The position numbers were made by a program, and so were the translations under genes. This document shows, piece by piece, positions 2,428 through 52,939 of a stretch of 52,939 nucleotides of DNA. Within the stretch, counting starts at the first letter, position 1, and each line of letters starts with the position of its first letter. The notes below the pieces were generated by a model. It did not search any database, was not told the DNA's origin, and worked only from the letters and a program-made list of their open reading frames with translations. The stretch is from an uncultured Bacteroidales bacterium (GTDB taxonomy: Bacteria; Bacteroidota; Bacteroidia; Bacteroidales; Paludibacteraceae): NCBI GenBank assembly GCA_900319995.1, contig ONQO01000006.1, forward strand, positions 1-52,939. Reading direction: 5' to 3'.

Positions 2428-4803
2428 GTGAATTACTATCCCGAAAACATAGAGCAGAAAATCGACTTTACGGAGATTCGCGAGGAACTGCGTCGCCGTT
2501 GTTCCTCTCCTTTGGGGCGCGAGCGTGTGGATGCCATGCAGATGGAGACGGACTACGGTACAGTCTTTCGCTTGTTGTCCCTTACCGACCAGATGTTAAA
2601 GGCGCAGACGGATCCAATGCTTTCTTTTCCGCGCGGAGACATCCATGACATGCGTGAAGCGGTTTCGCGAATCCGTATAGAGGGCCTGTTCCTTGATGAG
2701 GCGGAGTTGGACGCGCTTCGCAAAACGCTCTCTTTTGCCGCGGAATTAGAGACCTTTTTCTCCGCTCTCGACCCGCAACGATACCCGCTTCTAATAGAAC
2801 TGCCGAATAGTAACCATACTCCGACAGAGCCGACTCAGCAGACTCTCAAAGCAATCGTGGAAACGATCAACCGCGTGTTGGACCGCTACGGCAAACTGGC
2901 AGATAATGCCTCGCCGGAACTGCAACGTATAAGGCGCGAACTGGTGAACCTCCAAGGTTCGGTGGGCAAGACATTGGCTTCTATTCTTCGGCAGGCGAAA
3001 GCGGACGGATTAGTCGATGCCGACGCTGCTCCCACTCTGCGTGAAGGGAGACTTGTTATTCCTGTTCCACCCGGATACAAACGCAAAATAGGCGGTATCG
3101 TACACGACGAATCGGCAACGGGCAAGACGGTTTATATAGAGCCGCAACAAGTTGTTGAAGCCAATAATCATATACGTGAGTTGGAAGGAGCCGAACGGCG
3201 TGAGCGTATCCGTATCCTTCATGACGTCACCGACCGATTACGCCCCAATACAGGGTTGATTATCGATAGTCAGCGTCTATTGGCTGAGGTGGATTTTCTT
3301 TCCGCCAAAGTGTCGCTTGCTCAGACCCTACATGCCATTCGTCCGGAGCTGGTGGACACGCCGCAATTGGACTGGGTTGACGCACGACACCCCGTTCTTT
3401 GGCTGCATTATCATCCTCAGAACAAACCCGTTATTCCCCTCTCTGTTCGTCTGAGAGCGGAGGAAAACCGTATGCTCGTTATTTCCGGTCCCAATGCCGG
3501 CGGCAAATCGGTTTGTCTCAAAACAGTAGCTCTGCTCCAATATATGCTCCAAAGCGGCTTGTTGGTTCCGGTGGGAGAGCAGAGTAGAGCAGGGCTCTTT
3601 TCGCAACTAATGATTGACATAGGTGACGAGCAGTCCATTCAGGACGAGTTGTCCACCTATTCCTCTCATTTGCGCAACATGCGCTCTTTTTTGCGTTCCG
3701 CGGATGACCACACACTCATCCTCATAGACGAGATGGGAACAGGAACAGAGCCGCTCATAGGAGGAGCAATAGCAGAAGCCATTCTGCACGAACTGGTGGA
3801 GAAACGCGTTTTTGGCGTCATTACTACCCATTATACCAATATCAAACATTTCGCCGAGCAGACTAAAGGCGTCGTCAATGGCGCTATGCTATACGACAGG
3901 GGAGCAATGAAACCGCTCTTCCAACTCTCTATCGGGCAAGCAGGTAGCAGTTTCGCCATCGAGATAGCACGACAAACAGGTCTCGGAGAGAAAATCATCC
4001 AATACGCTTCGGATCTGGTGGGAGAAGAACATATCGAATATGACAAACAATTGCAGGACATAGCCCGCGATAAACGATATTGGGAGAACAAACGTCAATC
4101 CATCCGCCAAAAAGAGAAAGAACTGGAGTCGCGTATCGCCCAATACGACGAGCAGATGAGCGGTATCAAGCAGAAAAAGAAAGAGGTCTTGGAGGAAGCA
4201 CGGCAGCAAGCCGAACAATTGCTCAAACAGTCGAACGCCGCTATCGAACGTACTATCCGGGAAATAAAGGAAGCCAAAGCCGATAAGGAGAAAACCAAAG
4301 TAGCGCGGCAACGGGTGGAAAACCTCAAAGAGAAAGTCGAAAGTCAAAAGTCGAAGGTCCAAAGTCAAAACGGGACAGAGCCTTCCGAAAGTCGAAAGCA
4401 AAAAGTGCTGAAAGATTTCCGTGACCTCAAACTGCTCAAAGGAGAAGTCTCAATTCTCAATTCTCAATTCTCAACTCTCAATTCTCCATTAAGCAACGCT
4501 ACCGTCCGCTCTACGGTTCGTCAGCGTACCTTGGCTTTCGAACGCACACTGGATTTGCGTGGACTACGAGCGGATGAAGCTCTGGAGAAACTGATTGCGT
4601 ACATGGACGATGCCTTGATGGTTGGAGCCGGAGAAGTGACTATTCTGCATGGCACAGGTACCGGCGCGCTCAAACAGCTTACGCGTGACTACCTCGATGA
4701 TATCAACCGTCAGCGCCGAAAAAGAGGACAAATAACGCTCGATTTTGGAGATGGAGACGTCAACCACGGAGGTGCCGGCTTAACGGTTGTGACGTTGGGA
4801 TAG
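2428..4803 (+). CDS. mutS2: MutS2 family ATPase/endonuclease with Smr domain
   Basis: 791-residue MutS2. The start is GTG at 2428; no better ATG fits the conserved N-terminus (YYPENIEQKIDFTEIREELR). The core and lever region is followed by the ATPase with Walker A GPNAGGKS (about residues 355-362), Walker B LILIDEMGTGTEP and a TTHYTNIKHFA segment. A long charged coiled coil follows, then a C-terminal Smr nuclease domain with the LDLRGLRADEAL and HGTGTGALK motifs. MutS2 suppresses recombination and rescues collided ribosomes in other bacteria. Unusually, the linker before Smr contains two 35-bp arrays of 7-bp repeats (4332-4366 and 4450-4484), translated as KVESQKSKVQSQ and SILNSQFSTLNS. These residues look like inserted spacer rather than conserved family sequence. 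Confidence 0.95.
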   Translation: MNYYPENIEQKIDFTEIREELRRRCSSPLGRERVDAMQMETDYGTVFRLLSLTDQMLKAQTDPMLSFPRGDIHDMREAVSRIRIEGLFLDEAELDALRKTLSFAAELETFFSALDPQRYPLLIELPNSNHTPTEPTQQTLKAIVETINRVLDRYGKLADNASPELQRIRRELVNLQGSVGKTLASILRQAKADGLVDADAAPTLREGRLVIPVPPGYKRKIGGIVHDESATGKTVYIEPQQVVEANNHIRELEGAERRERIRILHDVTDRLRPNTGLIIDSQRLLAEVDFLSAKVSLAQTLHAIRPELVDTPQLDWVDARHPVLWLHYHPQNKPVIPLSVRLRAEENRMLVISGPNAGGKSVCLKTVALLQYMLQSGLLVPVGEQSRAGLFSQLMIDIGDEQSIQDELSTYSSHLRNMRSFLRSADDHTLILIDEMGTGTEPLIGGAIAEAILHELVEKRVFGVITTHYTNIKHFAEQTKGVVNGAMLYDRGAMKPLFQLSIGQAGSSFAIEIARQTGLGEKIIQYASDLVGEEHIEYDKQLQDIARDKRYWENKRQSIRQKEKELESRIAQYDEQMSGIKQKKKEVLEEARQQAEQLLKQSNAAIERTIREIKEAKADKEKTKVARQRVENLKEKVESQKSKVQSQNGTEPSESRKQKVLKDFRDLKLLKGEVSILNSQFSTLNSPLSNATVRSTVRQRTLAFERTLDLRGLRADEALEKLIAYMDDALMVGAGEVTILHGTGTGALKQLTRDYLDDINRQRRKRGQITLDFGDGDVNHGGAGLTVVTLG
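4332..4366 (+). repeat. 7-bp tandem array, five units, inside mutS2
   Basis: Five consecutive 7-mers related to GAAAGTC (variants AAAAGTC, GAAGGTC, CAAAGTC). They lie in frame in the coiled-coil linker of MutS2 and encode residues near 636-647. Confidence 0.9.
4450..4484 (+). repeat. 7-bp tandem array, five units, inside mutS2
   Basis: Five copies of TCAATTC, one with a single change (TCAACTC). The unit is the exact reverse complement of the GAATTGA unit in recQ, so on both coding strands the array reads SILNSQFS. It encodes the linker just before the Smr domain. Confidence 0.95.
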
Positions 4804-4807
4804 GGAA

Positions 4808-4887
4808 AAATTGAAAGTTGAAAGTGTCGTTATCACGTTATTACGTTATCACGAAAAATCTGAATACTGAATGCTGAATACTGAATT
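4808..4887 (+). repeat. Three adjacent short tandem arrays filling the gap before the barrel protein
   Basis: The 87-base gap holds TTGAAAG twice, then an 8-bp unit CGTTATCA three times with one change (4829-4852), then CTGAATA four times with last-base changes (4860-4887). The last array ends three bases before the ATG at 4891. I see no promoter or terminator here. Confidence 0.85.
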
Positions 4888-4890
4888 AAT

Positions 4891-5601
4891 ATGAAGAAAG
4901 GAATCCTTTTTTTGACTCTCTTGTGTCCTTTGTTGCTCTTCGCCGGAAACCCCGGTTTCGGGGAACGACATTATTCGCTGTCAGCGATGGCGGAGTACAG
5001 TTACAACACCACTTGGGGACATCACGGCAATTTCGATGTGCAGGCATTGATGCCCTTTAACCCTCATTTCGAGATGGAGGCAAAACTGCAGTTCTCAACC
5101 GCAAACGTGCATACGATGGCTTTGCAGTTCAGACCTAAGTTTGAGTTGCCCGTCGGAGAAATGTTCCTCGAAACAGATGTGCTCTACCGGGCTGTCGCAC
5201 GTAACCGTATCCATGATTTCACCGCCGCACTCGGGGTCGGCTATCGCATGGACCATGTGTCGGTGACGCTTGGCGTTTTCTGTCGCGTAATGGATGATTG
5301 GGACCGCGATTGGCACGCTAACGAAACGTATGTGGTCGAACCCTTCAACCTCCTCTATCGCATTGAGGTTTTCTGCCGGCCGCAGAACAATCCCTGGAAT
5401 CTGTCATTCATGTTCAGTAATGTCGATGACTACCAATTGGAGCGAATGTGGCAGCCGCTTTTCTCTCTCGGCGCTTGGTATGACGTCAACAATCATTGGC
5501 GTCTCAACTTCGCTGCACAATGCAAACCGACCGGAATGTTCCATCTTGACGCCTCTTTCTACGGAGCTACACTTCGTGCCGGATTTAGTTACAGATTCTA
5601 A
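4891..5601 (+). CDS. Predicted outer-membrane beta-barrel protein
   Basis: 236 residues. A signal peptide (MKKGILFLTLLCPLLLFAG) is followed by alternating amphipathic strands rich in Tyr, Trp and Phe, and the protein ends in YRF. The terminal Phe is the usual recognition signal for BAM-dependent barrel insertion. The length suits a barrel of about 8-12 strands. No enzyme motif is visible, so it could be a porin-like or structural protein. It is followed after 15 bases by a phosphoesterase lipoprotein and is probably co-transcribed with it. Confidence 0.7.
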   Translation: MKKGILFLTLLCPLLLFAGNPGFGERHYSLSAMAEYSYNTTWGHHGNFDVQALMPFNPHFEMEAKLQFSTANVHTMALQFRPKFELPVGEMFLETDVLYRAVARNRIHDFTAALGVGYRMDHVSVTLGVFCRVMDDWDRDWHANETYVVEPFNLLYRIEVFCRPQNNPWNLSFMFSNVDDYQLERMWQPLFSLGAWYDVNNHWRLNFAAQCKPTGMFHLDASFYGATLRAGFSYRF

Positions 5602-5616: not shown

Positions 5617-6492
5617 ATGAAAAAATTATCTATACTTGTATGGGTTGGCATCATGGCGCTTTCCTGTGCCAACGAAGAGGCTACTTTGGACATAGCCGGT
5701 ATGTTCTCGTCCAACGGCGAACCGGTCAATACACGCTTTGAGCAATCGCTCGCTTACAACGACTCCGTTGGAGAAATACATCTGGACATGAAAGCCGATA
5801 ACTATACGGTTTTTGTCTGCTCGGACAGCCATATAACTCGAAAGGAGCACAAGAACCTTGATTATTTCGTAGCGCAGTTCAATGATGCCGCAACGCCCAA
5901 ATTAGCAATTCATCTCGGCGACCTCATTGACGCGCAAAATAACTTCCCTTGCGCTGACAGCGTCCTCCGGACGGGCGGAAGATCCATTAATGATACCCTT
6001 TTCATTACACCCGGAAACCATGACGTCTATTTCAAACAGTGGCCTGTTTACCGCTCCTTTTTCAAAACCGGCACCTATTGGTTTGATACCAATAACGGAA
6101 CGAAAAAACTGGACTTGTTCATCTGCCTCGACAGCGCCGATGGTACCTTGGGAAGAAAGCAGATGAAATGGCTCAAAGAACTTCTCGAACGCAAATCGAA
6201 GGAGGGATACAGGAGAATCATTGTCTTTACCCATACGCATTTATGGAAGCTGGACGGCTCGCAGGGACATACCTCCAATATGGCATTGGAAGATACCTAT
6301 GAGTTGACCGCTCTTCTTGCCAAATACGGGGTGGAGTACATGTGGAGCGGACACCAGCATGCACGGCAGTCGGTTATCTTTAAGAATGTCTGCTATCTGG
6401 TGCTGGATGCCACCAAGGATAACGAACGGGGTCAGGCATACATGACCGTTGATTTAGGCGATGATGCCATCTATCATTATCACAATTATTGA
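5617..6492 (+). CDS. Lipoprotein metallophosphoesterase
   Basis: 291-residue calcineurin-like phosphoesterase. The N-terminus has a lipobox (MALSCANEE), so it is probably anchored to a membrane and faces the periplasm or the cell surface. The metal-binding motifs appear in the family order: SDSHITRKEH, HLGDLID, GNHDVYF, FTHTHLW and SGHQHAR, giving a complete dimetal site. The substrate cannot be read from the sequence. It has an AAAGGAG ribosome-binding sequence 7 bases before the ATG, which is unusual for this phylum. It forms a pair with the upstream barrel protein and is closed by a strong terminator. Confidence 0.88.
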   Translation: MKKLSILVWVGIMALSCANEEATLDIAGMFSSNGEPVNTRFEQSLAYNDSVGEIHLDMKADNYTVFVCSDSHITRKEHKNLDYFVAQFNDAATPKLAIHLGDLIDAQNNFPCADSVLRTGGRSINDTLFITPGNHDVYFKQWPVYRSFFKTGTYWFDTNNGTKKLDLFICLDSADGTLGRKQMKWLKELLERKSKEGYRRIIVFTHTHLWKLDGSQGHTSNMALEDTYELTALLAKYGVEYMWSGHQHARQSVIFKNVCYLVLDATKDNERGQAYMTVDLGDDAIYHYHNY

Positions 6493-6541: not shown

Positions 6542-6576
6542 TTGGCTGTTGGCTGTTGGCTGTTGGCTATTTCCCA
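6542..6576 (+). repeat. 7-bp tandem array (TTGGCTG)
   Basis: Three TTGGCTG, one TTGGCTA and a degenerate fifth unit, placed directly after the terminator in the intergenic gap. The reverse complement matches the CAACAGC-type units near rpsB and in the CobW gene. Confidence 0.85.
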
Positions 6577-9920: not shown

Positions 9921-10077
9921 TTTTTATCGACCATGATGGTCGATGCTCTCAATAAAAGACACAAGCTAAGCTCGAAAAAATGACACAAGTTATGTGCCTT
10001 TTTTATCGACCATATATGGTCGATGCTCTCAATAAAAGACACAAGCTAAGCTCGAAAAAAGACACAAGCTAAGCTCG
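9921..10077. repeat. 60-bp direct repeat with an inner palindrome, two full copies and a partial third
   Basis: Copies at 9921-9980 and 10000-10060 share a palindrome with arms ATCGACCAT/ATGGTCGAT (centre G in copy one, AT in copy two), then GCTCTCAATAAAAGACAC, then AAGCTAAGCTCG and an A-run. The last part, GACACAAGCTAAGCTCG, appears a third time at 10061-10077. The palindromes are not followed by T-runs, so they are not ordinary terminators. Confidence 0.85.
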
Positions 10078-10555
10078 CACGCCTAACGAGCAAAAAGGAG
10101 AAGAAATTATTCGCTTGCGGAACTGGCGAACACAGGACACCGAGGGGCGGTTTGGGGAAGGGTAAGCATGCCGAGAGTTGAAGGGAATGGATGCTACAAT
10201 GGGATTTCGGACGCATGGAAAGATGAAGCAAGAATCTTTTTTTTGTGCCCAATAGGGATGAAAAGTATATTATATATAAATATATAATATAGTATAAGAG
10301 TAACGAAAAAGTGCTCAAACTATAGTCTGAGAGTACGGCGACATACCTCTGAGAGTACGGCAACGTACCTTATATGGTCTAGGTATGGTATAGATATGGT
10401 CTAGGTATGGTCTAGTATTGGCAGGTACGAGTCTTGTGGTAGGTGTGGTAAAAGTTAGTGATTCGTTTATGTGCGTGTTTTTAAAAGGCAAAATAGTGCA
10501 TAAGCGGACAAAATCTACCAAATAACGTGTTTTTTTTATTTTTCTTGCAAAAAAA
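10078..10555. other. Gene-free interval with tandem repeats before rplM
   Basis: No open frame here has coding character; the longest minus-strand frame (10046-10363) crosses the repeats and matches nothing I know. A 22-bp unit beginning CTGAGAGTACGGC occurs twice at 10327-10370. An 11-bp unit TATGGTCTAGG occurs four times with small changes at 10373-10416. An AT-only stretch lies near 10266-10291. Confidence 0.7.
10327..10416. repeat. 22-bp x2 followed by 11-bp x4 tandem repeats
   Basis: Two 22-bp units (10327-10348, 10349-10370) and four 11-bp units (10373, 10384, 10395, 10406) lie side by side. Both periods are multiples of 11. Confidence 0.9.
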
Positions 10556-11856: not shown

Positions 11857-12714
11857 ATGAGAACAAATTTTGATCAATTGTTGGAGGCCGGCGCACATTT
11901 TGGCCACCTCAAACGCAAATGGAATCCCGCCATGGCTCCTTACATCTACATGGAGCGTAATGGTATTCACATCATCGACCTGAACAAGACAGCCCTCAAA
12001 ATCGAAGAGGCAGCAGAGGCGCTCAAGAATCTTGCACGTAGTGGTCGCAAAGTGCTGTTTGTAGGCACGAAGAAACAAGCTCAAGAAGTAGTAGCAGCAC
12101 GTGCACAGGAAGTGGGCATGCCTTATATTACCGAGCGTTGGGCTGGTGGTATGCTTACCAACTTCCCCACCATTCGTAAGGCAGTCAAGAAAATGAGTCA
12201 GATAGACAAGATGACGAGCGACGGTACGTTGGATAACGTGTCCAAACGCGAGAAACTGCAAATTGCCCGTCAGCGTGAGAAACTGGAGAAGAACCTCGGT
12301 TCTATCGCCGACATGACTCGTCTTCCGAGCGCCGTATTCGTAGTGGACGTCATCAAAGAGAAAATAGCCGTAGCAGAGGCAAACCGTCTCGGAATCCCTG
12401 TATTCGGAATCGTTGATACGAACTCCAACCCGAACAATATTGACTTTGTAATCCCCGCCAATGACGATGCGACCAAGGCTATTGACGTTATCCTCGGCGC
12501 AGTATGCGATGCCATCAAAGAGGGTCTTGAGGAGCGTAAAGTAGAGAAGGCTGACGAGAATGCGGCAGAAGCCCAAGCAGCAGAGGAAGCACCGGCTCCC
12601 AAAGAGCGCCGTCAGCGTATCCGCAAAGCCGCTCCCAAAGCAGAGGCAGAGAAAGTAGCAGAGGCGAAAGCTCCTGAAGCTAAAGAAGAGCCGAAAGCAG
12701 AGGAGGCAGAGTAA
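11857..12714 (+). CDS. rpsB: 30S ribosomal protein S2
   Basis: 285 residues. The S2 core is complete: LLEAGAHFGHLKRKWNPAMA, the FVGTKKQAQEVV segment, ERWAGGMLTNFPTIRKAVKK and the IPVFGIVDTNSNPNNIDFVI region. The last 50 or so residues are an Ala/Glu/Lys-rich extension, common in Bacteroidota S2 and probably disordered. It precedes tsf, the conserved order. The stop codon TAA is itself part of the 7-bp array that fills the gap to tsf. Confidence 0.98.
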   Translation: MRTNFDQLLEAGAHFGHLKRKWNPAMAPYIYMERNGIHIIDLNKTALKIEEAAEALKNLARSGRKVLFVGTKKQAQEVVAARAQEVGMPYITERWAGGMLTNFPTIRKAVKKMSQIDKMTSDGTLDNVSKREKLQIARQREKLEKNLGSIADMTRLPSAVFVVDVIKEKIAVAEANRLGIPVFGIVDTNSNPNNIDFVIPANDDATKAIDVILGAVCDAIKEGLEERKVEKADENAAEAQAAEEAPAPKERRQRIRKAAPKAEAEKVAEAKAPEAKEEPKAEEAE

Positions 12715-12747
12715 TTGATAATTGATAATTGATAATTGAGAATTGAT
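12713..12747 (+). repeat. 7-bp tandem array, five units, forming the whole rpsB-tsf spacer
   Basis: Five AATTGAT units (the fourth is AATTGAG), beginning within the rpsB stop codon and ending one base before the tsf ATG at 12749. Confidence 0.95.
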
Positions 12748-13741: not shown

Positions 13742-15279
13742 TGGAAAAAGCAAGCAAAATAAAAATTGCGAAATGTTTAGGATGGGGAGCGCTAATTATA
13801 GTGCTCCTCTTCACTTTGGTATTGTTAATCGCGTCTCCGATAGCTCGTCATTTGGTTAATACCAAGGGCATGGACTGGGTTGGACGCGAGTTGCATGTGG
13901 AAAGCGTCCTCATTAATCCTTTCTCAGGAGGAGTGACATTAAAAGGTTTCTCATGCAAGGAGCAGGACGGAGAGACGGACTTTATCGCTTTTGACCAACT
14001 CCATGTCCGTGTGGCATATCCGCTGTTGTTGGCTAAAGACGTGAAAATAAGGACGATACGATTGGATGGATTTGACGGTCAAGTCCTCAAGTATGACAGT
14101 TGTCTGAATTTCTCGGACATCGTCAATCGTTTTACAGAACCGGCAGATACAACGGAGAAAGACAGTACGGCCAGTGGATGGAAGGTAGGCATCGGAGATA
14201 TCCGCATCAGCAACAGTACTGTCCGTTATCACGATATAGAGAAGAACAAACAATGGCAGATAGAAGATATATCACTCAATATCCCGGGTTTGTATTTCGA
14301 CAACAAGAAAACCAAAGCCGGTCTTGAGTTCGGCCTTGCCTCCGGCGGACAAGTAGGCGTCAAAGCAGGTTACCGTATGAAATCAGGGCTGTATGATGTT
14401 GAATTGGCTCTTCAAGACGTACATACGGATGTGCTGATGCCTCTATTGGAAGATTATCTGAAAGACAAAGAGATAGCTGCGATAGTGAATGGAAACTTGC
14501 AAGTAGCCGGCGATTTGGCAAATATCCAAGATATCCGTTATGGTGGTAATCTCACATTGAGTGACGTGCAGTTCGTTGACAAATCCGGAACACACGAATG
14601 GCGTTACAATCTGAAGAGTGTGCAAGTCTCCGGCAGTAATCTGACAACTGACGGTATTACTCGTCTTTCTTTGGATGCCGTAACGGAGACAGGCGGAACG
14701 TTGAGTGGTTCGCTGACCGGAGATTTGGATTTGGCAAAGCGGGACACGAAAATCAGTATGCAAATGCGCGGAATCAATATAGCGGAATTCGATGCTTTAT
14801 GCCGTAACTACACCGGCTATCCGATTGAGCAAGGAATGCTTCTGTTGGACAGTAAGATAGATGTCATATCCGGTCAGATGAAGGGTAATAACCGAATAGA
14901 GATAGACCATCCCCGCATCGGCAAAAAAGAGCGCGGAACGAAAGCTCCGTACAGAAATGTGCCGGTACGTATGGGTTTCATGACACTAACGTCCTCGAAA
15001 GATATGATATTGCTGGACGTTCCCGTTACCGGAGATGCGAACAATCCTAAATTCAGTTTCCGCAAGGTAGTAAGTCGCGCATTGCTGAAAGTGTTCTTCG
15101 GACCTCTGATGGGACTCAAAGACCGTGACAAGTCCATCACAGAAGAGGAACTTCGTGAGATGCAGAAGTTGTTGGGAGAAGATTCGGAGTTATTCGGTCA
15201 GGACTCTGTGCATGAGGTCTCTGCAAACATCGCACCGTCCGCAAACGGGAGCGTCGTTCTCCCCGAAATAAGCAAGTAG
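13741..15279 (+). CDS. AsmA-like / DUF748 inner-membrane protein
   Basis: 512 residues. One N-terminal transmembrane helix (about 13-33) is followed by a large periplasmic beta-rich part typical of DUF748/AsmA proteins, bridge-like proteins implicated in lipid transport across the envelope in other bacteria. Recognisable segments are GRELHVESVLINPFSGGVTL, then LDAVTETGGTLSGSLTGDLD and MTLTSSKDMILLDVPVTGDA, followed by PKFSFRKVVSRALLKVFFGP. The start shares one base with the tsf stop, so translation may be coupled. Its last 90 bases overlap recQ on the other strand, a tail-to-tail coding overlap. Confidence 0.8.
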   Translation: MEKASKIKIAKCLGWGALIIVLLFTLVLLIASPIARHLVNTKGMDWVGRELHVESVLINPFSGGVTLKGFSCKEQDGETDFIAFDQLHVRVAYPLLLAKDVKIRTIRLDGFDGQVLKYDSCLNFSDIVNRFTEPADTTEKDSTASGWKVGIGDIRISNSTVRYHDIEKNKQWQIEDISLNIPGLYFDNKKTKAGLEFGLASGGQVGVKAGYRMKSGLYDVELALQDVHTDVLMPLLEDYLKDKEIAAIVNGNLQVAGDLANIQDIRYGGNLTLSDVQFVDKSGTHEWRYNLKSVQVSGSNLTTDGITRLSLDAVTETGGTLSGSLTGDLDLAKRDTKISMQMRGINIAEFDALCRNYTGYPIEQGMLLLDSKIDVISGQMKGNNRIEIDHPRIGKKERGTKAPYRNVPVRMGFMTLTSSKDMILLDVPVTGDANNPKFSFRKVVSRALLKVFFGPLMGLKDRDKSITEEELREMQKLLGEDSELFGQDSVHEVSANIAPSANGSVVLPEISK

Positions 15280-16905
15280 AATCTGCTCGCGACAGAATTG
15301 GTTTTGGTCGGCATATTCGACCATCGCATTCATTTTTGCAACAAAGCGCACTTGGCGTTGTTCGAAGATAGCTGGCGACAGATAGATTTCCGTCTGTCGC
15401 TCGTTTGTCATAGTAAGGCAACATCCCACCGAACGCGGAATATAGGTTATGATGCCCCGTTGAGCAAGCGAAACAAGCAAATCGTGAGTGGTTTTTGTGT
15501 CAGCTTCGCGGACGTATTGTAGTTCCGTATAAATGCCTGTATAACTGCGCATGAGCAAGTCCAATAGTTCTGCCTGTTCGCGCGAGAGGTTATATTCGCC
15601 GAGTTGGTACCTGGGAATGTGGATTTGTACACGCGGTTGCGTCTCATGTTCTTCCTCAAAGTCAATGTATCCCGCTTGCGTCAGGATATGCAGCGCAGAG
15701 TAGGTTTGTATTACCGGTAGTTTCATTATGTGGCACAACTGGTCCATGTGTACAGTGAACCGGTGTCCTAAACCGCTTCCAGCACCTATCTGCAAGAAGT
15801 CCATCGTTTTGTGATAGACTTGTTCGATGAACTCTTTGGGAGGGTAATTATCCGTGATTCGCTTGCGTGCTTTGGCTTTGTCCTCTGATTCGTTGTAGAG
15901 CAACACGGCGTAAGCGGTTTTTCCGTCTCGTCCCGCGCGGCCCGCTTCCTGATAATAGGACTCCAGGTTGGAAGGTAAGTCATAATGAATGACGATTCGC
16001 ACGTCGGGTTTGTCAATGCCCATGCCAAACGCATTGGTGGCTACGATGACACGTGTCTCGCCTCGTGTCCACGCTTCTTGCCGTTCGTTGCGTTCTTGGG
16101 TTGTAAGACCGGCGTGATAGAATTGAGAATTGAGAATTGAGAATTGAGAATTGAGCCATTCGGATAGTTCTTGGGCACGTTTGCGGTTGCGGACATAGAC
16201 GATGGCTGAACCGGGTACACGAGAGAGGATATGTGCAACCTGTTCTTCTTTTTTCTCTGTGCGGCGTACTACGTAAATGAGGTTTTCCCGGTGAAACGAT
16301 TTCCGTAATACGTTCTTTTCTTGGAACGCTAATTTGTCCTGTATGTCATCTATCGTTTCCGGTGTAGCGGTTGCCGTTAATGCCAGAACAGGCACATCGG
16401 GCAGCAGTTTGCGTACTTCCGCTATATTCAGATAGGACGGACGGAAATCATATCCCCATTGTGAGATACAATGAGCTTCATCCACAGCGATCAGTCCGAC
16501 CGGTAAATCTGCCAAACGTTTTCTAAATTCCTCACTCTCAAGTCTTTCCGGCGAGCAATAGAGAAAATGGTAAGGGCCATAGAGACAATTGTCCAGCGCT
16601 ACTCGCTGCTTGTCATAACTCATTCCGGAATAAACGGCTGCTGCGTGAATACCTTTTTCCTGAAGGTTCGTCACTTGGTCACGCATCAACGCTATCAGCG
16701 GAGTGACTACAATACATAAACGCTTCTCCGGGTTGTCGTGTGCCATGACAAGCGTCGGCACCTGAAAACAGATACTCTTCCCTCCGCCCGTAGGCATCAG
16801 CGCCAGCGTGTCTTTGCCCGACAACACCGAATCGATGATTTCCGCCTGTAATGGACGGAAATCATCGTATCCGAAATAGGTATGTAATGCTTCGCGCGGA
16901 GTCAT
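15190..16905 (-). CDS. recQ: RecQ-family ATP-dependent DNA helicase
   Basis: 571 residues. Helicase motifs are in order: LMPTGGGKSICFQVP (Walker A, about 37-50), VDEAHCISQWGYDFRP, LTATAT, and YYQEAGRAGRDGK. The C-terminus has the zinc-binding cysteines (FCREQILLAYF, then CGRCDVC), and no HRDC domain follows, as in the shorter Bacteroidota RecQ type. At residues about 251-262 the linker of the second RecA lobe is made by a five-unit 7-bp array, giving LNSQFSILNSQF just before the conserved YHAGL. The gene starts 16 bases after gltX and overlaps the DUF748 gene end by 90 bases on the opposite strand. Confidence 0.93.
   Translation of the reverse strand: MTPREALHTYFGYDDFRPLQAEIIDSVLSGKDTLALMPTGGGKSICFQVPTLVMAHDNPEKRLCIVVTPLIALMRDQVTNLQEKGIHAAAVYSGMSYDKQRVALDNCLYGPYHFLYCSPERLESEEFRKRLADLPVGLIAVDEAHCISQWGYDFRPSYLNIAEVRKLLPDVPVLALTATATPETIDDIQDKLAFQEKNVLRKSFHRENLIYVVRRTEKKEEQVAHILSRVPGSAIVYVRNRKRAQELSEWLNSQFSILNSQFYHAGLTTQERNERQEAWTRGETRVIVATNAFGMGIDKPDVRIVIHYDLPSNLESYYQEAGRAGRDGKTAYAVLLYNESEDKAKARKRITDNYPPKEFIEQVYHKTMDFLQIGAGSGLGHRFTVHMDQLCHIMKLPVIQTYSALHILTQAGYIDFEEEHETQPRVQIHIPRYQLGEYNLSREQAELLDLLMRSYTGIYTELQYVREADTKTTHDLLVSLAQRGIITYIPRSVGCCLTMTNERQTEIYLSPAIFEQRQVRFVAKMNAMVEYADQNQFCREQILLAYFGENDAPVCGRCDVCRDLMHRVLTE
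16120..16154 (-). repeat. 7-bp tandem array, five units, inside recQ
   Basis: Five perfect GAATTGA units on the plus strand. On the coding strand this is TCAATTC, the same unit as the second mutS2 array. Confidence 0.95.
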
Positions 16906-16921: not shown

Positions 16922-18544
16922 TTATCCTATTTTTTCTATGGCGAAGCGGACACGGCGGAGGGTTTCTTCTTTGCCGAGGATGTTGGTTATTTCCCAAATA
17001 TGCGGACCACGTGCAGCCCCAACGAGGCAGATACGGAAAGCATTCATCACAATGCCAACACCGTACTCTTTTTCAGCAATCCACGGCATGACTACATCGT
17101 CCAAAAGCCAGCGTGTAACGGCATTTCCGTCATCATTTGTAGTCTCATAGGACTTGTGCCAATCTTCTTCACTAACGGTTTCAAGGAGTGCGACTAATTC
17201 CTGCATATGACGCGGCGAGTCTTCCTTCCAGCGTTTTTTGAGTGATTTCTCATCATACTCTGTTGGGGCTACGAAGAAGAAGTTTGTCTGCTCCCATAGT
17301 TCCGGAACAAAATTAACGCGATCCTTTGTCAAGCCGATGATTTTGGCGATCATCGTTTTGTCATTTGCCATTTGACATTTGTCATTTGACATTTTTTCTT
17401 CCAGAACCGGGATGAACATCTCTGCAAGTTCTTCATTGCTGCGGAGTTGGAGGTATTGGTGGTTGAACCATTTTCCTTTCTCGTAGTCGAATTTAGCACC
17501 GGATTTGGACACACGGTCAAGGGAGAACTCTTTGATTAACTCATCCATTGTGTACAGTTCCTGGTCCCCCGATCCATGCCATCCGAGTAACGCCAAGAAA
17601 TTAATAACCGCCTCGGGCAGGTATCCGCTTTCGCGGTAGCCGGATGAAACGGTTCCGTCTTTCTCATTGTGGAACTCAAGAGGAAAGACAGGGAATCCAA
17701 GTCGGTCACCATCGCGTTTGGACAGTTTGCCGTTTCCGTCCGGTTTGAGGAGCAACGGCAGGTGTGCGAACTGAGGCATCGTATCTTGCCAGCCGAACGC
17801 GCGATAGAGTAAAACATGTAGTGGGGCAGAAGGTAGCCATTCCTCTCCCCGGATGACATGGCTGACCTCCATCAAATGGTCATCCACGATATTGGCGAGG
17901 TGATAGGTAGGAAGGTCATCTGCGGATTTATAGAGCACTTTGTCATCAAGGATATTGGAGTTGATAACCACTTCTCCGCGAATGAGGTCATGCACATGTA
18001 CATCCTCGTCCGGCTCCACTTTGAACCGGACTACGTATTTCTCGCCTTTGTCCAATAGTGCCTGTACTTCCTCTGCCGGCATGGTCAAAGAGTTGCGCAT
18101 TTGCATACGCGTGCGTGCATCGTATTGGAAATTAGGAATCTCCGCACGTTTGGCTTCCAGTTCTTCCGGCGTGTCAAAAGCAATATACGCATGGCCGCTA
18201 TCCAACAGTTGTTTTACATACTGATGGTAGATTTCGCGTCGCTCGGACTGACGATAAGGGCCATGAGAGCCGACAGCTTCAATTTGTAATTTGCCATTTG
18301 TACTTTGTGATTTAGCTGCGCGAAGCCCTTCATCAATCTCAATGCCAAGCCAATCCAAGGCTTCAAGAATATACTCTTCTGCTCCGGGCACAAAGCGTGT
18401 GCTGTCCGTATCTTCGATTCGCAGCAACATGTCACCGCCGTGCTGACGTGCGAACAGATAGTTGTACAACGCGGTACGTACACCGCCAATGTGTAATGCA
18501 CCTGTAGGACTTGGCGCAAAACGAACTCTTACTTTTCTTTCCAT
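16922..18544 (-). CDS. gltX: Glutamate-tRNA ligase
   Basis: 540 residues from the ATG at 18544, the start that gives the family N-terminus [20 protein letters not shown], with the HIGH-type motif. An in-frame start 30 bases upstream would overlap the aminotransferase gene. The KMSKS-type motif is [11 protein letters not shown]. The enzyme charges tRNA-Glu. Two 7-bp arrays are translated within it: residues about 74-92, in the loop before [12 protein letters not shown], and about 383-395 ([12 protein letters not shown]), in the anticodon-binding half. Both are extra, low-complexity residues. The start codon comes one base after the aminotransferase stop, so gltX appears to be transcribed with the polysaccharide locus. 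Confidence 0.96.
17361..17395 (-). repeat. 7-bp tandem array, five units, inside gltX
   Basis: Units TCATTTG, CCATTTG, ACATTTG, TCATTTG and ACATTTT on the plus strand, in frame in the C-terminal half of gltX. Confidence 0.93.
18280..18314 (-). repeat. 7-bp tandem array, five units, inside gltX
   Basis: Units CAATTTG, TAATTTG, CCATTTG, TACTTTG and TGATTTA on the plus strand. The array is more diverged than the others but keeps a strict 7-bp period over 35 bp. Confidence 0.85.
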
Positions 18545-18545
18545 A

Positions 18546-32909: not shown

Positions 32910-33053
32910 AAATTTTATTTCTTTTGCCATCTTTTCGATTCCGGCTCAGTCATTATGGAGCCCATAACTCCCTCACCGGAAATCAAAAATCTGTCTAAAT
33001 AAATTAAAAATGGTATTTCGTACTATTATGTACCTTAGCATTACCTATCTGTC

Positions 33054-33130
33054 CGTTATCGTGTCGTTATCGTGTCGTTTCCGTGTCGTTTTCGTGTCGT
33101 TTCCGTGTCGTTTCCGTGTCGTTGTCGTGT
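33054..33130. repeat. 11-bp tandem array, seven units, between the two dehydrogenase genes
   Basis: Units of the form CGTTNYCGTGT start at 33054, 33065, 33076, 33087, 33098, 33109 and 33120 with strict 11-bp spacing. An eighth degenerate unit begins at 33131. The array fills part of the 271-base gap inside an otherwise gapless operon; nothing else is recognisable in that gap. Confidence 0.95.
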
Positions 33131-33180
33131 TTGACAGGTGTTCGACGGGTTTTAGGCACGTGTTTGACAGATGTTTGGAT

Positions 33181-37379: not shown

Positions 37380-38602
37380 TTCAGAAAATACCAGTCTTGC
37401 TGCTCACGGGATATCTTGGGAGCGGCAAGACAACGCTTCTCAATCGTATCCTGACGAATAACAAGGGGATACGCTTTGCTGTGATTGTCAATGACATAGG
37501 AGAGGTTAATATTGACGCATCCTTGATTCAGAAGGGTGGAGTAGTGTCTCAGAATGATGATTCGCTTGTGGCGCTCCAGAACGGTTGTATCTGTTGCTCC
37601 CTTAAAATGGATCTCATTCAGCAGTTGCACGACTTGGTAGCACAGAAAATAGCACCGGATAGCCAACAGCCAATGTTTGACTACATCGTCATAGAAGCAT
37701 CCGGTATCTGCGAGCCTGCTCCGATTGCGCAAACGCTATGTTCGTACGCGCAGATGGTTCCTCAGTTCGCCACCGACGGACTTCCCGTACTTGATTGCAT
37801 CTGCTCCGTTGTGGACGCTTTGCGCATCCGTGATGAGTTTATGGAGGACCTAATGACCAACAGCCAACAGCCAATTGCCAAAGAGGAAGATCTGGCGGCC
37901 TTGGTGATCGAGCAAATAGAGTTCAGTAATATTATCTTGCTGAACAAGGCATCCGAAGTAAGCCCCGACGAATTGGCACGCATCAAAGCAATAGTACAAG
38001 CGATACAACCTGTTGCTCAAATCATAGAGACCGATTATTGCGACGTGGATTTTGATAAGATTCTCAATACGCATCTCTTTGATTTTGACCGTACTGCCAC
38101 TTCTGCCAAATGGATACAAGAGGTTGAGGACGCTCACCATCATCACGACGATGATGATGACGACGACGATGACGATGCGGATGAACACCATCACCATCAT
38201 CACGACCATGACGATCATGATCACGACCACCTCGCTGAGTTCGGTATAGAGACCTATGTATATTACGCGCGTAGGCCATTCGACCTGGGTTTCTTTGATG
38301 AGTTTGTTGCGGCTCATTGGCCTAAGAATGTCATCCGCTGCAAAGGAATGTGCTATTTTGCGGAAGAATATGACATGTGTTATCTTTTTGAGCAAGCGGG
38401 AAAACAGTTCAATATCCGCAAGGCGGGAGAATGGTTCGCTACTATGCCCAAGGAGGAACTCATGCAACTCATGGCTGACGATCCTCAACTCCGTAAGGAT
38501 TGGGATGAACAATACGGCGACCGGATGCAGAAACTCGTTTTTATCGGTCAGCATCTGGACATCCCTGCCATCAAAGCTGCTTTGGATAACTGTTTGCAGT
38601 AA
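37376..38602 (+). CDS. CobW/ZNG1-type GTP-dependent metal chaperone
   Basis: 408 residues. The Walker A is TGYLGSGKTTLLNRIL (11-26), the metal-binding CxCC motif is GCICCSLKMDL (70-80), and VIEASGICEPAP and NKASE follow in the family order. A linker (about 255-285) is almost entirely His and Asp, and could buffer zinc or another divalent metal. The C-terminal CobW_C domain is present (RPFDLGFFDEFVAAHWPKNV, IRCKGMCYFAEEYD). These GTPases insert zinc into client enzymes. Two short CAACAGC-type repeats encode SQQP at about residues 97 and 163. It is translationally coupled to the GT117 gene. Confidence 0.92.
   Translation: MIQKIPVLLLTGYLGSGKTTLLNRILTNNKGIRFAVIVNDIGEVNIDASLIQKGGVVSQNDDSLVALQNGCICCSLKMDLIQQLHDLVAQKIAPDSQQPMFDYIVIEASGICEPAPIAQTLCSYAQMVPQFATDGLPVLDCICSVVDALRIRDEFMEDLMTNSQQPIAKEEDLAALVIEQIEFSNIILLNKASEVSPDELARIKAIVQAIQPVAQIIETDYCDVDFDKILNTHLFDFDRTATSAKWIQEVEDAHHHHDDDDDDDDDDADEHHHHHHDHDDHDHDHLAEFGIETYVYYARRPFDLGFFDEFVAAHWPKNVIRCKGMCYFAEEYDMCYLFEQAGKQFNIRKAGEWFATMPKEELMQLMADDPQLRKDWDEQYGDRMQKLVFIGQHLDIPAIKAALDNCLQ
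37857..37884 (+). repeat. 7-bp tandem array inside the CobW gene
   Basis: CCAACAG twice, then CCAATTG and a degenerate CCAAAGA. A two-unit copy of the same type lies at 37662-37675. Both encode a Ser-Gln-Gln-Pro peptide. Confidence 0.7.
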
Positions 38603-39193: not shown

Positions 39194-39211
39194 CCAATGG
39201 TAAATGATTAA

Positions 39212-48389: not shown

Positions 48390-48417
48390 TTTTTATGTGA
48401 ATTTCGATTTGCGGGTG

Positions 48418-48449
48418 CAAAGTTACAACAAAAAATCGACATATGCAAA
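48418..48449 (-). promoter_or_regulatory. Promoter of the proX-GH3 genes
   Basis: Minus-strand -33 TTTG (48449-48446), 20-bp spacer, -7 TAACTTTG (48425-48418), 29 bases before the start. Confidence 0.8.
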
Positions 48450-48476
48450 TGCAAATTCCACTTTTTGGTTTATTTA

Positions 48477-48508
48477 TTTGTATATATGTAAATTTATTCG
48501 TACCTTTG
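48477..48508 (+). promoter_or_regulatory. Promoter of the UmuC-like gene
   Basis: -33 TTTG (48477-48480), 20-bp spacer, -7 TACCTTTG (48501-48508). No LexA-type operator was recognised. The start codon lies 18 bases after the -7 box. Confidence 0.82.
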
Positions 48509-48525
48509 CAGCGGATTTTACGAAC

Positions 48526-49782
48526 ATGTATATTCATCTGGATTGCAATAATTTCTTCGTGAGTTGCGAGTTAGTCTCGCGGCCGGAATTGAAGGGTACG
48601 CCGGTTGTTGTGGCCAATAATAATGACAACAACGGCGGGATTATCCTTGCCCTAAACCAAGAGGCGAAAGCGGTTGGTCTAAAGAGAGGTAATCCTATTT
48701 TTCAGGTGACGAAAATCATTGAGCTAAATCATGTGACGGTCATTGATGTCCATCATCAACTCTATCACGATATCTCGCATCATATCATGGATGAAGTGCG
48801 GAAGACGGAAATGGTGCTCGGATTCGTGCAGTACAGTGTTGATGAGTTCTTCGGCGAGATGCCGGATGACGATTCTGTCCGTCTCCGAAGTTATCTACAG
48901 GAGCTCAAAGACCTGATTTTTCGCGAGACAGGTATTCCTGTCAGTTGTGGGGCCGGAATAACATACACGCTCGCCAAAACAGCCACATGGTTTGCCAAGC
49001 ATTATCCTGCATACAAAGGCATCTGTATCATGCCGGCAGACAAACGCGAATCAGCACTTGCACAAGTCCCCGTCAAAGATGTTTGGGGAATTGGAAGACG
49101 CAGCATCAAAACTATTGATTATCAAGGTGTCAAGACAGCGTTAGACTATACCCGCCTGCCCGAAGTGTGGATCAACAGGCAATTCGGAGTCACCGGCCTG
49201 CGTACATGGAAAGAGTTAAACGGCATTCCCGCCATCACTATTGCCGGTCACGAGTTGCAGAAATCCATCATGTACAGCCGCACGTTCGCGCATATGACAA
49301 GCAGCAAAATAGTGCTGCTGCGCGAACTGAGCAACTATGCCTCTTCTGCTACCCGTAAATTGCGTGAGCAGCAATCACTATGCCGTACCGTAACGCTATT
49401 CTTGGCAACAAACCGCCATCGGGAAGACTTGCCGCAGTATCATGTGGACGATACGATCAAACTGGGCACAGCAACGGATGACTCTGCGCTGATCATTCAC
49501 GCCGTGACACAATTGCTGGATAGATTATTCCGCGAGAACTACCAATATAAACAAGCGGGTGTAATCTTAGGGCAGTTGCAGCACTCCGATGCAGTACAGT
49601 TAGATCTCTTTGCACCGAACCAAGCACAAAAACAAGCGAAACGGAAACGCCTGATGCAAGCGATAGACGGCATCAACCAGCGATTTGGACGTAACCAGAT
49701 TCATTTTGCTGTACAAGGCACTGAAGCGGACACCTCCGAGCAACCGGCCGGCTTTATGAGACCGAAGAGAGTGGATGAATAG
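48526..49782 (+). CDS. umuC: Y-family DNA polymerase (UmuC/DinB type)
   Basis: 418 residues from the ATG at 48526; the longer open frame from 48397 would include the promoter. The catalytic palm is YIHLDCNNFFVSCELVSRPE (first Asp) and QYSVDEFFGEMP (Asp-Glu pair), GAGITYTLAKTATWFAKHYP follows, and the helix-hairpin-helix is DVWGIGRRSIKTIDYQGVKT. The C-terminal little-finger domain is complete. The form is that of UmuC, but no umuD is next to it; lone UmuC-like genes are known in the phylum. It is likely used in translesion synthesis. Confidence 0.93.
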   Translation: MYIHLDCNNFFVSCELVSRPELKGTPVVVANNNDNNGGIILALNQEAKAVGLKRGNPIFQVTKIIELNHVTVIDVHHQLYHDISHHIMDEVRKTEMVLGFVQYSVDEFFGEMPDDDSVRLRSYLQELKDLIFRETGIPVSCGAGITYTLAKTATWFAKHYPAYKGICIMPADKRESALAQVPVKDVWGIGRRSIKTIDYQGVKTALDYTRLPEVWINRQFGVTGLRTWKELNGIPAITIAGHELQKSIMYSRTFAHMTSSKIVLLRELSNYASSATRKLREQQSLCRTVTLFLATNRHREDLPQYHVDDTIKLGTATDDSALIIHAVTQLLDRLFRENYQYKQAGVILGQLQHSDAVQLDLFAPNQAQKQAKRKRLMQAIDGINQRFGRNQIHFAVQGTEADTSEQPAGFMRPKRVDE

Positions 49783-49810
49783 AAGTTAGCCTTTTTCATT
49801 ATTACGCCCT

Positions 49811-49870
49811 AATTAGCCTCTATTTAGCCTCTATTTAGCCTCCATTTCCGTTACCATCTCGTTACCATTA
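49811..49870. repeat. Two 11-bp tandem arrays after the UmuC-like gene
   Basis: ATTTAGCCTCT three times with small changes (49811-49843), then CGTTACCATCT twice with changes in the last two bases (49849-49870). Confidence 0.88.
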
Positions 49871-51712: not shown

Positions 51713-51853
51713 CACCCGCTTTCAAAAATTAGGTTTTCAGAAACCCTCTGGGGTCCCCGAAAATTTCTAATTTTTGGGGAGAGCGAGAACACGGCGAAAA
51801 TTCATATGAGCAATTTCATTGCGAATCGTATTAAGCCGTAATTCGCGCGAGGA

Positions 51854-51926
51854 GAATCAGTAGCTCAGCAGGTAGAGCACATCCCTTTTAAGGATGGGGT
51901 CCTGGGTTCGAGCCCCAGCTGGTTCA
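51854..51926 (+). tRNA. tRNA-Lys(UUU)
   Basis: 73 bases. Acceptor GAATCAG/CTGGTTC, D-arm TAGCTCAGCAGGTAGAGCA, anticodon loop CTTTTAA (anticodon TTT), T-arm CTGGGTTCGAGCCCCAG. Discriminator A; CCA is not encoded. Confidence 0.97.
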
Positions 51927-51930
51927 CAAA

Positions 51931-51956
51931 GAAGAGAGTTTCGGCTCTCTTTTTTG
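51931..51956 (+). terminator. Terminator of tRNA-Lys
   Basis: AGAGAG/CTCTCT stem with a TTTCGG loop and a T-run of six. Confidence 0.85.
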
Positions 51957-52002
51957 TTTTCCTTTTCATTCTTTCAAATAGCGCGGTAACAATTTTGCGC
52001 TG

Positions 52003-52157
52003 CAAAATTACTACAAAAAATCCAAATGTGCAAATAAAATTCATTTTATTTTGCCATTTGCTGGATTTTGCGACCGTAATTTCGGGGGAAACGTAGTGGC
52101 GGAGTCCGAAATTACTACAAAAAATCCAAATGTGCAAATAAAATTCATTTTATTTTG
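52003..52157 (-). repeat. Duplicated 49-bp element holding a minus-strand promoter
   Basis: 52005-52053 and 52109-52157 are identical over 49 bp. On the minus strand the first copy has -33 TTTG (52034-52031), a 20-bp spacer and -7 TAATTTTG (52010-52003). In the second copy the -7 reads TAATTTCG. No gene on that strand begins before ispG, about 370 bases away and beyond the tRNA. Confidence 0.85.
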
Positions 52158-52313
52158 TAGTTTGCCGGATTATACTGCTTTTTTGTGGGTGCAAGCATTC
52201 AATCCCGCGACCACATCGAGACCACATCGCGACCTGTATGAAAGGTGTGAAGTTAATTTTACTTTGGCACGGAGTTTGTAATACTCTTTCTGCAAATTTT
52301 AATTTACGACACT
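52158..52313. other. Upstream region of the HtrA gene
   Basis: GACCACATCGA occurs twice with one change at 52209-52230 (11-bp unit). TACTTTGG near 52260 resembles a -7 box but differs at one base. No clear promoter. Confidence 0.45.
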
Positions 52314-52939
52314 ATGAAAAAGATATTTAGATTTTTAGGCATCGTGCTGCTCGTCGCAGCCGTCAGTGCCGGAACAACACTCGCTGTATTGAAATACAGC
52401 AATCCACAATTTCAAATCACCAATTACAAATCACAAATCACAAATGATTCCACCGGAATCCCTGCGGCATATAGCCGCTTCGCGTCTCTTCCGCAGGCAG
52501 GAGAGACGGATTTTACGCAGGCTGCCGAGCTGTCCGTCAATGCGGTTGTTCACGTCAAGACCACGTACCGCAACCAGGTCTCCTCGCAGCAGATGGACCT
52601 CTTTGAGTTCTTCTTCGGCCGTCCGGGACAGCAACGCGAGATGCCGGCGCAGCAGGCGTCCGGTTCGGGTGTCATCATCTCCGAGGACGGCTATATCGTC
52701 ACCAACAACCATGTCATCGACCGTGCGGACCAGATTCAGGTTGTCCTCAACGACAAACGCGAGTACACGGCTACGCTGGTCGGCACTGACCCGAACACGG
52801 ATATCGCGCTCCTGAAAATTGAAGAGACAGGCCTGCCGGTGATTCTCATGGGCAACTCTGACGACTTGCGCGTCGGCGAATGGGTGCTTGCTGTCGGCAA
52901 TCCGTTCAACCTGACTTCGACCGTCACGGCAGGCATCGT
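52314..52939 (+). CDS. HtrA/DegP-like serine protease, 3' end outside the window
   Basis: The first 208 codons are present. A hydrophobic N-terminal segment (about 6-26, FLGIVLLVAAVSAGTTLAVL) acts as signal or anchor. The trypsin-like domain has the catalytic His in GYIVTNNHVID and the Asp in DPNTDIALLK. The Ser (in a G-N-S-G-G motif) would lie beyond the window. A glycine-rich GSGVII strand and the LA-loop region with Phe-rich DLFEFFFGRP fit DegP/DegQ. Such periplasmic proteases degrade or hold misfolded proteins. A 7-bp array (52414-52448) encodes residues about 34-45 (ITNYKSQITND), just after the membrane segment. Confidence 0.93.
   Translation, partial: MKKIFRFLGIVLLVAAVSAGTTLAVLKYSNPQFQITNYKSQITNDSTGIPAAYSRFASLPQAGETDFTQAAELSVNAVVHVKTTYRNQVSSQQMDLFEFFFGRPGQQREMPAQQASGSGVIISEDGYIVTNNHVIDRADQIQVVLNDKREYTATLVGTDPNTDIALLKIEETGLPVILMGNSDDLRVGEWVLAVGNPFNLTSTVTAGI
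52414..52448 (+). repeat. 7-bp tandem array, five units, inside the HtrA gene
   Basis: AAATCAC, CAATTAC, AAATCAC, AAATCAC and AAATGAT in order, preceded by a degenerate sixth unit (CAATTTC). Confidence 0.9.

What the first reader, a model, noticed from the sequence alone, without database searches (positions are those of the whole stretch)
4332..52448. Dispersed family of 7-bp tandem arrays, often exactly five units, with many different unit sequences
At least eight sites carry a strict 7-bp period over 35 bp: 4332, 4450, 6542, 12713, 16120, 17361, 18280 and 52414. Shorter or degenerate arrays are at 4860, 11819, 37857 and 39196. Unit sequences differ (GAAAGTC, TCAATTC, TTGGCTG, AATTGAT, CATTTGN, AAATCAC, CTGAATA), so the arrays are not copies of one element, yet period and total length recur. 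Random slippage would not be expected to give the same unit length and copy number with unrelated units. Heptanucleotide STRR repeats of heterocystous cyanobacteria are the closest known analogue. A dedicated insertion or polymerase-based process is my inference.
Basis: partly seen in the sequence, partly recalled or inferred. Interest (0 to 1): 0.85.

Follow-up and report, generated by a model that had tools for sequence, protein, structure and literature searches.

The report
Seven-base repeat blocks in bacterial genes
This bacterium and its relatives, mostly known from animal guts, carry many short stretches, usually 16 to 40 letters long, that repeat a seven-letter word which differs from place to place, and comparisons of relatives suggest that at least some arrive as ready-made blocks between neighbouring genes.

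Summary
The window carries nine period-7 arrays (eight clear, one degenerate; TRF copies 3.9-6.1, not 'exactly five'), in mutS2, recQ and gltX, at the rpsB-tsf junction and near other gene ends.

In this Bacteroidales genus period 7 dominates, also in contigs picked blind. There is no excess of two-copy arrays (14-15 bp), an excess at 16-23 bp, the bulk at 24-39 bp (140 against 14.7 for control periods), and a fall beyond. Length is thus a broad band, not a fixed five.

Units recur within genomes (3.9% of pairs against 0.84% between). Arrays crowd the tightest gene junctions (about 25 per kb of leftover spacer, 1.4 or less elsewhere). At rpsB-tsf the spacer is 2 nt in 14 of 36 sequences and 28-45 nt, mostly array, in 20.

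Four clean differences between relatives (83-94% aligned identity) are blocks of 27, 30, 38 and 48 bp at gene junctions. In the three tested, the unit is absent from the empty allele. This favours non-local block insertion plus local turnover over purely local slippage, without excluding slippage for many arrays.

A Y-family polymerase lead failed its test. Heptamer arrays are known elsewhere; block-like gain and junction bias across many units are the new part.

The parts
4332..4370 (+). period-7 array, unit GAAAGTC, inside mutS2 (2428-4803), between the MutS_V and Smr domains
4448..4490 (+). period-7 array, unit TCTCAAT, inside mutS2, same stretch
   Evidence: same unit family at many places of the genome
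4807..4825 (.). short period-7 array, unit AAAGTTG, just after the mutS2 stop
4828..4853 (.). period-8 array, unit CGTTATCA, in the same spacer
4860..4886 (.). period-7 array, unit CTGAATA, ending 4 nt before the ATG of the ORF 4891-5601
6542..6568 (.). period-7 array, unit TTGGCTG, downstream of the ORF 5617-6492 and, by eye, of a terminator-like hairpin with a T run
12712..12747 (+). period-7 array, unit TAATTGA, filling the 34-nt spacer between the rpsB stop and the tsf start
16119..16155 (-). period-7 array, unit AGAATTG (five copies, perfect), inside recQ (15190-16905, minus strand)
17357..17394 (-). period-7 array inside gltX (16922-18574, minus strand), second variable loop; encodes [13 protein letters not shown]
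18281..18313 (-). degenerate period-7 array in gltX, first variable loop
   Evidence: below score 11
37857..37874 (+). short period-7 array, unit CCAACAG, inside the CobW-family ORF 37376-38602
52413..52445 (+). period-7 array, unit CAAATCA, running into the first ATG of the ORF 52444-52815
48397..49782 (+). UmuC-like Y-family DNA polymerase gene, tested as candidate machinery and not supported

Best explanation
At least some arrays begin as a block of roughly 27-48 bp that already has a 7-bp period and enters the chromosome in one step at a place that does not contain the unit. The most likely source is non-local: a short stretch copied from, or made on, another array of the same genome and captured at a break or gap with 0-3 nt of junction homology. 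Afterwards point mutation, 7-nt slippage and homogenisation change the unit and copy number in place. Inserts survive mainly where they separate two genes at a stop/start junction, or in frame in a protein loop.

Shown by comparison: the period, empty sites, absence of the unit from three empty alleles, recurrence of units within genomes, junction bias. Inferred: direction of change in most cases, the copying step, the repair pathway, and selection as the main cause of position. Why the step is 7 is not explained; a preferred slip length of a polymerase at the founding event is the best guess.
For: Period 7 far above other periods in 61 gltX loci (90 against 10, 7, 4 and 16 for periods 8-11) and in blind-picked contigs (37 against 11, 6, 2 and 12). 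No two-copy excess (14-15 bp: 95 against 89.3) and a bulk at 24-39 bp (140 against 14.7); in blind contigs 24-39 bp: 34 against 10, 2 and 1 for periods 8, 10 and 13. Clean presence/absence: 30 bp in G053, empty in G054, aligned DNA 94%; 38 bp in G052, empty in G051, 86%, with two further, more distant relatives lacking the array; 27 bp in G059, empty in G060, 84%; 48 bp in G052, empty in G051, 83%. Unit in the empty allele in the first three: best 4-5 of 7, no better than random places. Unit sharing 3.9% within a genome against 0.84% between, highest of 60 permutations 1.8%. Turnover: 12 of 16 pairwise comparisons at 93% identity or more keep the array, 15 of 21 at 88-93%, 60 of 127 at 83-88%, 100 of 253 at 78-83% (comparisons, not independent arrays).
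Against: Arrays of 16-20 bp are also in excess (77 against 32.0) and mostly stand alone (66 of 77), so 2.5-3 copy arrays exist as slippage would give. No donor is identified: the 38-bp insert's best other match in its genome is 92%, and the TTTAGGA insert of G053 has no other match in that assembly. Only four clean events were found, and outgroups bear on direction for one; precise loss is not excluded for the others. In 7 of 19 junction arrays, read by hand, the stop codon repeats in phase, and at rpsB-tsf the unit TAATTGA begins with the local TAATT, which fits a local origin for some arrays. Period-8 and period-11 arrays are not accounted for.
Confidence: 0.38

Rival explanations
1. Ordinary replication slippage with a preferred 7-nt step (the polymerase-footprint idea credited to Mrazek 2007). 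Chance near-duplicates grow to a band of about 2.5-5.5 copies.
For: Explains the strict period, the isolated 16-20 bp arrays, the 7-nt differences between sisters (L035/L036, L036/L038, G045/G046) and in-phase stop codons at some junctions (7 of 19, read by hand).
Against: No excess of two-copy arrays. Unit absent from three of three empty alleles tested. Units shared at distant places of one genome.
Confidence: 0.31
2. The arrays are selected for a function at gene junctions: spacing a stop from the next start, ending translation in all frames, or a leader ahead of the start codon. Gain is ordinary and selection fixes the place.
For: About 25 arrays per kb of residual spacer between ORFs 0-10 nt apart against 1.4 or less elsewhere. 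In spacers of 70 nt or more, 33 of 69 arrays lie within 8 nt of a gene end, about 8.7 expected. MacGregor suggested a role in translational regulation for TAACTGA (PMC4679880).
Against: 61 of 158 arrays are inside ORFs, and in GltX they sit in loops with many units. Stop triplets are not clearly favoured on the gene strand (38 of 48 against 33 of 48 on the other). Units differ at one junction between species. A stop within an array also moves the called gene end to the array.
Confidence: 0.2
3. A dedicated machine (retroelement, Y-family polymerase, end-joining system or transposase) writes the blocks.
For: Block-like gain and recurrence of units within genomes. At first the only array-poor genome seen (G011) lacked a Y-family polymerase.
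Against: Genomes without PF00817 can be array-rich (G098 25, G076 19.6, G069 17.5, G099 15 per 100 kb; all 12 lacking genomes together 8.8). Reverse transcriptase in 3 of 18, Ku in 0 of 13. No shared core sequence (120 canonical units in 277 arrays). Transposases were not searched for.
Confidence: 0.08
4. Assembly artefact of metagenome-assembled genomes.
For: Three stretches of array-rich genomes begin or end at a contig end inside an array (L131, L132, L137).
Against: Most arrays are shorter than a sequencing read; the same junction and loops carry arrays in many separate assemblies, in intact gltX ORFs.
Confidence: 0.02

Closest known systems
TAACTGA direct repeats of marine Beggiatoaceae, cyanobacteria and five Bacteroidetes incl. 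Paludibacter (MacGregor 2015, PMC4679880; abstract and sections 3, 7, 10 and 15 read)
   Same: 7-bp unit; most sets lie upstream of a start codon, the largest class ending 1 nt before it; some overlap the upstream stop; some lie in ORFs; the author considers mobility.
   Different: One unit sequence there; copy number falls from two (68 sets of 2, 40 of 3, 19 of 4, split sets apart). Here 120 canonical units among 277 arrays, no two-copy excess and a bulk at 24-39 bp.
Four- and five-heptamer elements of Geobacter metallireducens (PMC2700814; passages seen)
   Same: 49 elements with four tandem heptamers within and between genes; 15 of 16 sites of another class have five tandem heptamers. Dispersed and short.
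   Different: Two unit families read there as regulatory elements; no empty-site comparison in the passages seen.
GGGAATC heptamer repeats of Xanthomonas and GGGGA(C/T)T of Nostoc (PMC4692102; passages seen)
   Same: Heptamer arrays; in Xanthomonas most have four units; length and sequence vary between close species.
   Different: One G-rich family studied as G-quadruplexes; units here are A+T-rich and various.
Heptanucleotide long simple sequence repeats (Mrazek 2007, not held; seen only through PMC4679880 and PMC4692102) and cyanobacterial STRR (recalled; a search listing only)
   Same: Heptamers are the commonest long repeat class in many genomes; polymerase slippage proposed.
   Different: Slippage from a local unit does not fit the three empty alleles tested here.
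(GATAGRA)n heptamer satellites of Chloroflexus aurantiacus (PMC6749651; passages seen)
   Same: 22 satellites of one genome share one heptamer.
   Different: One unit, treated as satellites.

Membership tests
Heptanucleotide long simple sequence repeats | period 7 over-represented against other unit lengths | tested here: met
Heptanucleotide long simple sequence repeats | origin by slippage of a local unit | tested here: inconclusive
   unit absent from 3 of 3 empty alleles tested, but 16-20 bp arrays are in excess and some junction arrays repeat the local stop codon in phase
TAACTGA repeats | unit TAACTGA | tested here: not met
   no window array or 28 has that unit, nor has any G000 array listed
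TAACTGA repeats | location directly upstream of start codons or over stop codons | tested here: met
   for a large part of the arrays:
Cyanobacterial STRR | particular heptamer unit families of heterocystous cyanobacteria | not tested
   unit lists are recalled only; no STRR paper was read
MITE or other transposed element | shared core or terminal sequence | tested here: not met
   120 canonical units in 277 arrays
MITE or other transposed element | target-site duplication of fixed length | tested here: inconclusive
   in-phase continuation into the flanks 0-3 nt in three clean cases; too few cases
Contingency-locus repeats (phase variation) | copy-number change switching surface genes | not testable with these tools
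   several arrays lie in housekeeping genes; no population data

The most novel reading that the evidence does not exclude
A cellular process in these bacteria makes heptamer blocks of about 30-36 nt, with a unit set in trans (an RNA or donor array that differs between species), and inserts them preferentially where one gene's stop meets the next gene's start, thereby separating overlapping genes and adding new peptide loops to proteins: a standing source of new spacers and protein segments.
Probability: 0.12. Interest if true: 0.88.

Novelty: new variant of a known kind. Interest (0 to 1): 0.58.

Why it matters
Why seven is the favoured unit length of long bacterial repeats has been noted but not settled in the papers seen. 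This genus offers many close relatives with presence/absence differences, many unrelated units and the same period, so the question becomes testable by counting empty alleles and intermediates. It also shows a route by which operon spacers gain about 30 nt, and by which loops of housekeeping proteins such as GltX come to differ by roughly ten codons between relatives.

Tried and rejected
Y-family polymerase as the maker: G011 (1 array in 80 kb) lacks PF00817 while the 12 other genomes have it, and the window carries a umuC-like gene. A wider search found 17 of 72 genomes without it (16 of the 68 at least 90% complete and at most 5% contaminated). Stretches of 11 of those 17 other than G011 (contamination 6% in G085) plus G011 itself, 422 kb together, gave 37 period-7 arrays, 8.8 per 100 kb, with G098, G099, G069 and G076 rich and G068, G097 and G013 at zero (20, 40 and 10 kb). 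Rejected. Loci whose genomes lack it were not analysed further.

Reverse transcriptase (3 of 18) and Ku (0 of 13): not found in most or any, so not required.

All-frame stop device at junctions: stop triplets in 38 of 48 units on the gene strand against 33 of 48 on the other; not supported.

Common sequence grammar: TCAA, AATT and similar words over-represented and TA under-represented, but this may reflect genome composition; left open.

A sharp length hump: I first read as a hump at 24-39 bp alone. Recounting shows an excess also at 16-23 bp, mostly isolated and not fragments of longer arrays.

Tolerance alone as the cause of position: the first estimates used orthologous gltX loci that repeat the rpsB-tsf junction many times. 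One search leaves out the loci, though the window and two of its contigs (G060.C1, G054.C6) still hold that region. The excess remains: 19 arrays in 765 bp of 0-10 nt residual spacer (18 of the 19 run from a stop to an ATG) against 49 in 117.6 kb of larger ones. All neighbouring ORF pairs are counted there, whatever their direction.

Sampling bias: stretches of G018 and G019, five of 20 of G000 and C26 and C27 of G052 were chosen on contigs with known arrays, so their densities are too high; G011, G014 and one search were picked blind.

Rows dropped: of 8 rows passing, four (L033, L040, L054, L071 against L057) are gaps in neighbouring coding sequence and were dropped by eye. The 48-bp case is not among the 13 clean insertions, which needed stricter flanks; there 3 of 13 are period-7, 1 period-8, 1 a tandem duplication and 8 other, and the ORF caller put the 38-bp insert inside an ORF where I read a stop/start junction. 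The other-family density leaves out L104, G036 and G037, known to hold arrays. Gene calls are simple ORF calls (ATG starts, 90 aa or more), so starts are approximate.

Literature: eight searches ran. By titles and abstract starts listed there I saw no report of heptamer arrays in this genus or of empty-site evidence for block gain. Mrazek 2007 is not held. PMC4060949 was searched for heptamer terms without a hit.
Full report
What was checked. Tandem Repeats Finder lists nine period-7 arrays in the window (eight clear, one degenerate), with 3.9-6.1 copies and different units. Perfect period-7 runs stand out from most other periods; period 11 is also high. The claim 'often exactly five' is not right, and the site at 39196 is not listed. 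The window is contig C130 of a 2.61-Mb draft genome (G000). Its closest relatives by gltX are Bacteroidales metagenome assemblies, many from ruminants and several titled Paludibacteraceae.

Where the window arrays lie. Two are in mutS2, between the MutS_V domain (351-530) and the Smr domain (708-790). One is in recQ and two are in gltX. One fills the rpsB-tsf spacer, and others lie next to ORF ends. In the alignment of GltX from the window and 61 relatives, length varies in a few regions, two of which carry peptides encoded by heptamers. Period-7 arrays are found in 20 of 62 gltX genes, against 0-3 of 62 for seven control periods, with many units.

Genus-wide statistics. In 61 gltX loci (1.13 Mb), perfect runs by period are 7: 90; 8: 10; 9: 7; 10: 4; 11: 16. 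In 298 kb of G000, tolerant arrays are 7: 32; 8: 7; 9: 8; 10: 3; 11: 21. In 422 kb of blind-picked contigs of 12 genomes they are 7: 37; 8: 11; 9: 6; 10: 2; 11: 12; 13: 0. In a 1.42-Mb set without the loci, against the mean of periods 8, 10 and 13: 14-15 bp 95 against 89.3; 16-20 bp 77 against 32.0; 21-23 bp 28 against 8.3; 24-39 bp 140 against 14.7; 40 bp or more 27 against 1.7. Of the 77 arrays of 16-20 bp, 66 stand alone. So there is no two-copy excess, a broad band from 16 to 39 bp with its bulk at 24-39, and a fall beyond; (133 loci, 2.31 Mb, orthologs included) shows the same ends. Density is 7-15 per 100 kb in 11 of 12 genomes, partly on contigs chosen for arrays, and 1.2 in G011; blind genomes range from 0 to 25. 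In other Bacteroidales families, L104 and two genomes picked for a hit left out, it is 1.9 per 100 kb. One Prevotella locus from sheep abomasum is very rich (L104, 18 arrays in 20.8 kb).

Units. 277 arrays have 120 canonical units. Array pairs of one genome share the unit in 3.9% of cases against 0.84% between genomes; none of 60 label permutations exceeded 1.8%. The query from the 38-bp insert (ACATTAC-like) has 20 places in G052, its own counted, and none in its sister G051 at E of 1 or less; GGTTACN is common in G059 and G060; the TTTAGGA insert of G053 matches only itself there.

Gain and turnover. Clean differences between relatives: 30 bp in G053 against G054, 38 bp and 48 bp in G052 against G051, 27 bp in G059 against G060. 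As I read the sequences by eye, all four sit where a stop codon and the next start meet; the ORF caller put the 38-bp one inside an ORF. For the 30, 38 and 27 bp inserts, the best local match to the unit in the empty allele is 4-5 of 7, no better than random places; the 48-bp case was not tested. At the 38-bp place two further relatives also lack the array; at the 27-bp place two other species carry different inserts of 25 and 29 bp. Among 13 clean insertions of 18-60 bp between relatives at 83% or more, 3 are period-7. At 93% identity or more, 12 of 16 comparisons keep the array; at 83-88%, 60 of 127. Units are replaced in place, for example between G053 and G054.

Gene junctions. The rpsB-tsf spacer could be measured in 36 of 39 sequences: 2 nt in 14; 28-45 nt in 20, most with clear lag-7 identity (0.41-0.93) and several units; 95 and 106 nt in two. 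In the set, arrays number 19 in 765 bp of 0-10 nt residual spacer (24.8 per kb) and 0.28-1.43 per kb in longer ones; 61 of 158 arrays are inside ORFs. In spacers of 70 nt or more, 33 of 69 arrays lie within 8 nt of a gene end, where about 8.7 are expected (gltX orthologs included); in the set, 21 of 47. Part of the stop-side excess is built in, because a stop inside an array becomes the called gene end. Co-directional spacers of 25-44 nt show lag-7 identity of 0.51-0.56 against about 0.3 at most other lags in the gltX-centred set, 0.42 in other genus genomes (6 of 54 with an array) and 0.29 in other families (0 of 18).

Mechanism. The data favour one-step gain of a preformed heptamer block from a source outside the place for at least the clean cases, followed by local turnover; selection then leaves blocks at junctions and in loops. 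Slippage remains a serious rival for arrays in general. The donor, the enzyme and the reason for seven are not shown. A Y-family polymerase, suggested by G011, was tested in genomes lacking it and rejected; Ku and reverse transcriptase are not needed.

Known work. Heptamer arrays are known: TAACTGA at start codons in Beggiatoaceae, cyanobacteria and some Bacteroidetes (PMC4679880; abstract and sections 3, 7, 10, 15); four- and five-heptamer elements in Geobacter (PMC2700814, passages); mostly four-unit arrays in Xanthomonas (PMC4692102, passages); and heptamer satellites in Chloroflexus (PMC6749651, passages). What is new here, within the searches made, is empty alleles without the unit, the length band across more than a hundred units, and the measured junction bias.

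Noticed in passing
window 33046-33177, 10373-10415, 49809-49847: Period-11 arrays; period 11 is the second peak in this genome (21 arrays in 298 kb).
   Followed up: partly
window 48397-49782: UmuC-like Y-family polymerase; 17 of 72 genomes of the genus search lack any PF00817 match.
   Followed up: yes
   Followed up: no
L104: A Prevotella locus (sheep abomasum) with 18 period-7 arrays in 20.8 kb, several times denser than this genus.
   Followed up: partly
G000:C52:92470-92813: Overlapping matches suggest a heptamer tract of more than 300 bp.
   Followed up: no
window 9921-10077: About two copies of an 80-bp unit and a 23-bp repeat with AAAAGACACAAG words.
   Followed up: no
G052 counterpart of G051.C30:110691; L052 gltX: By eye, period-8 tracts with CGGTATCN-like units stand where relatives have period-7 arrays.
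   Followed up: no
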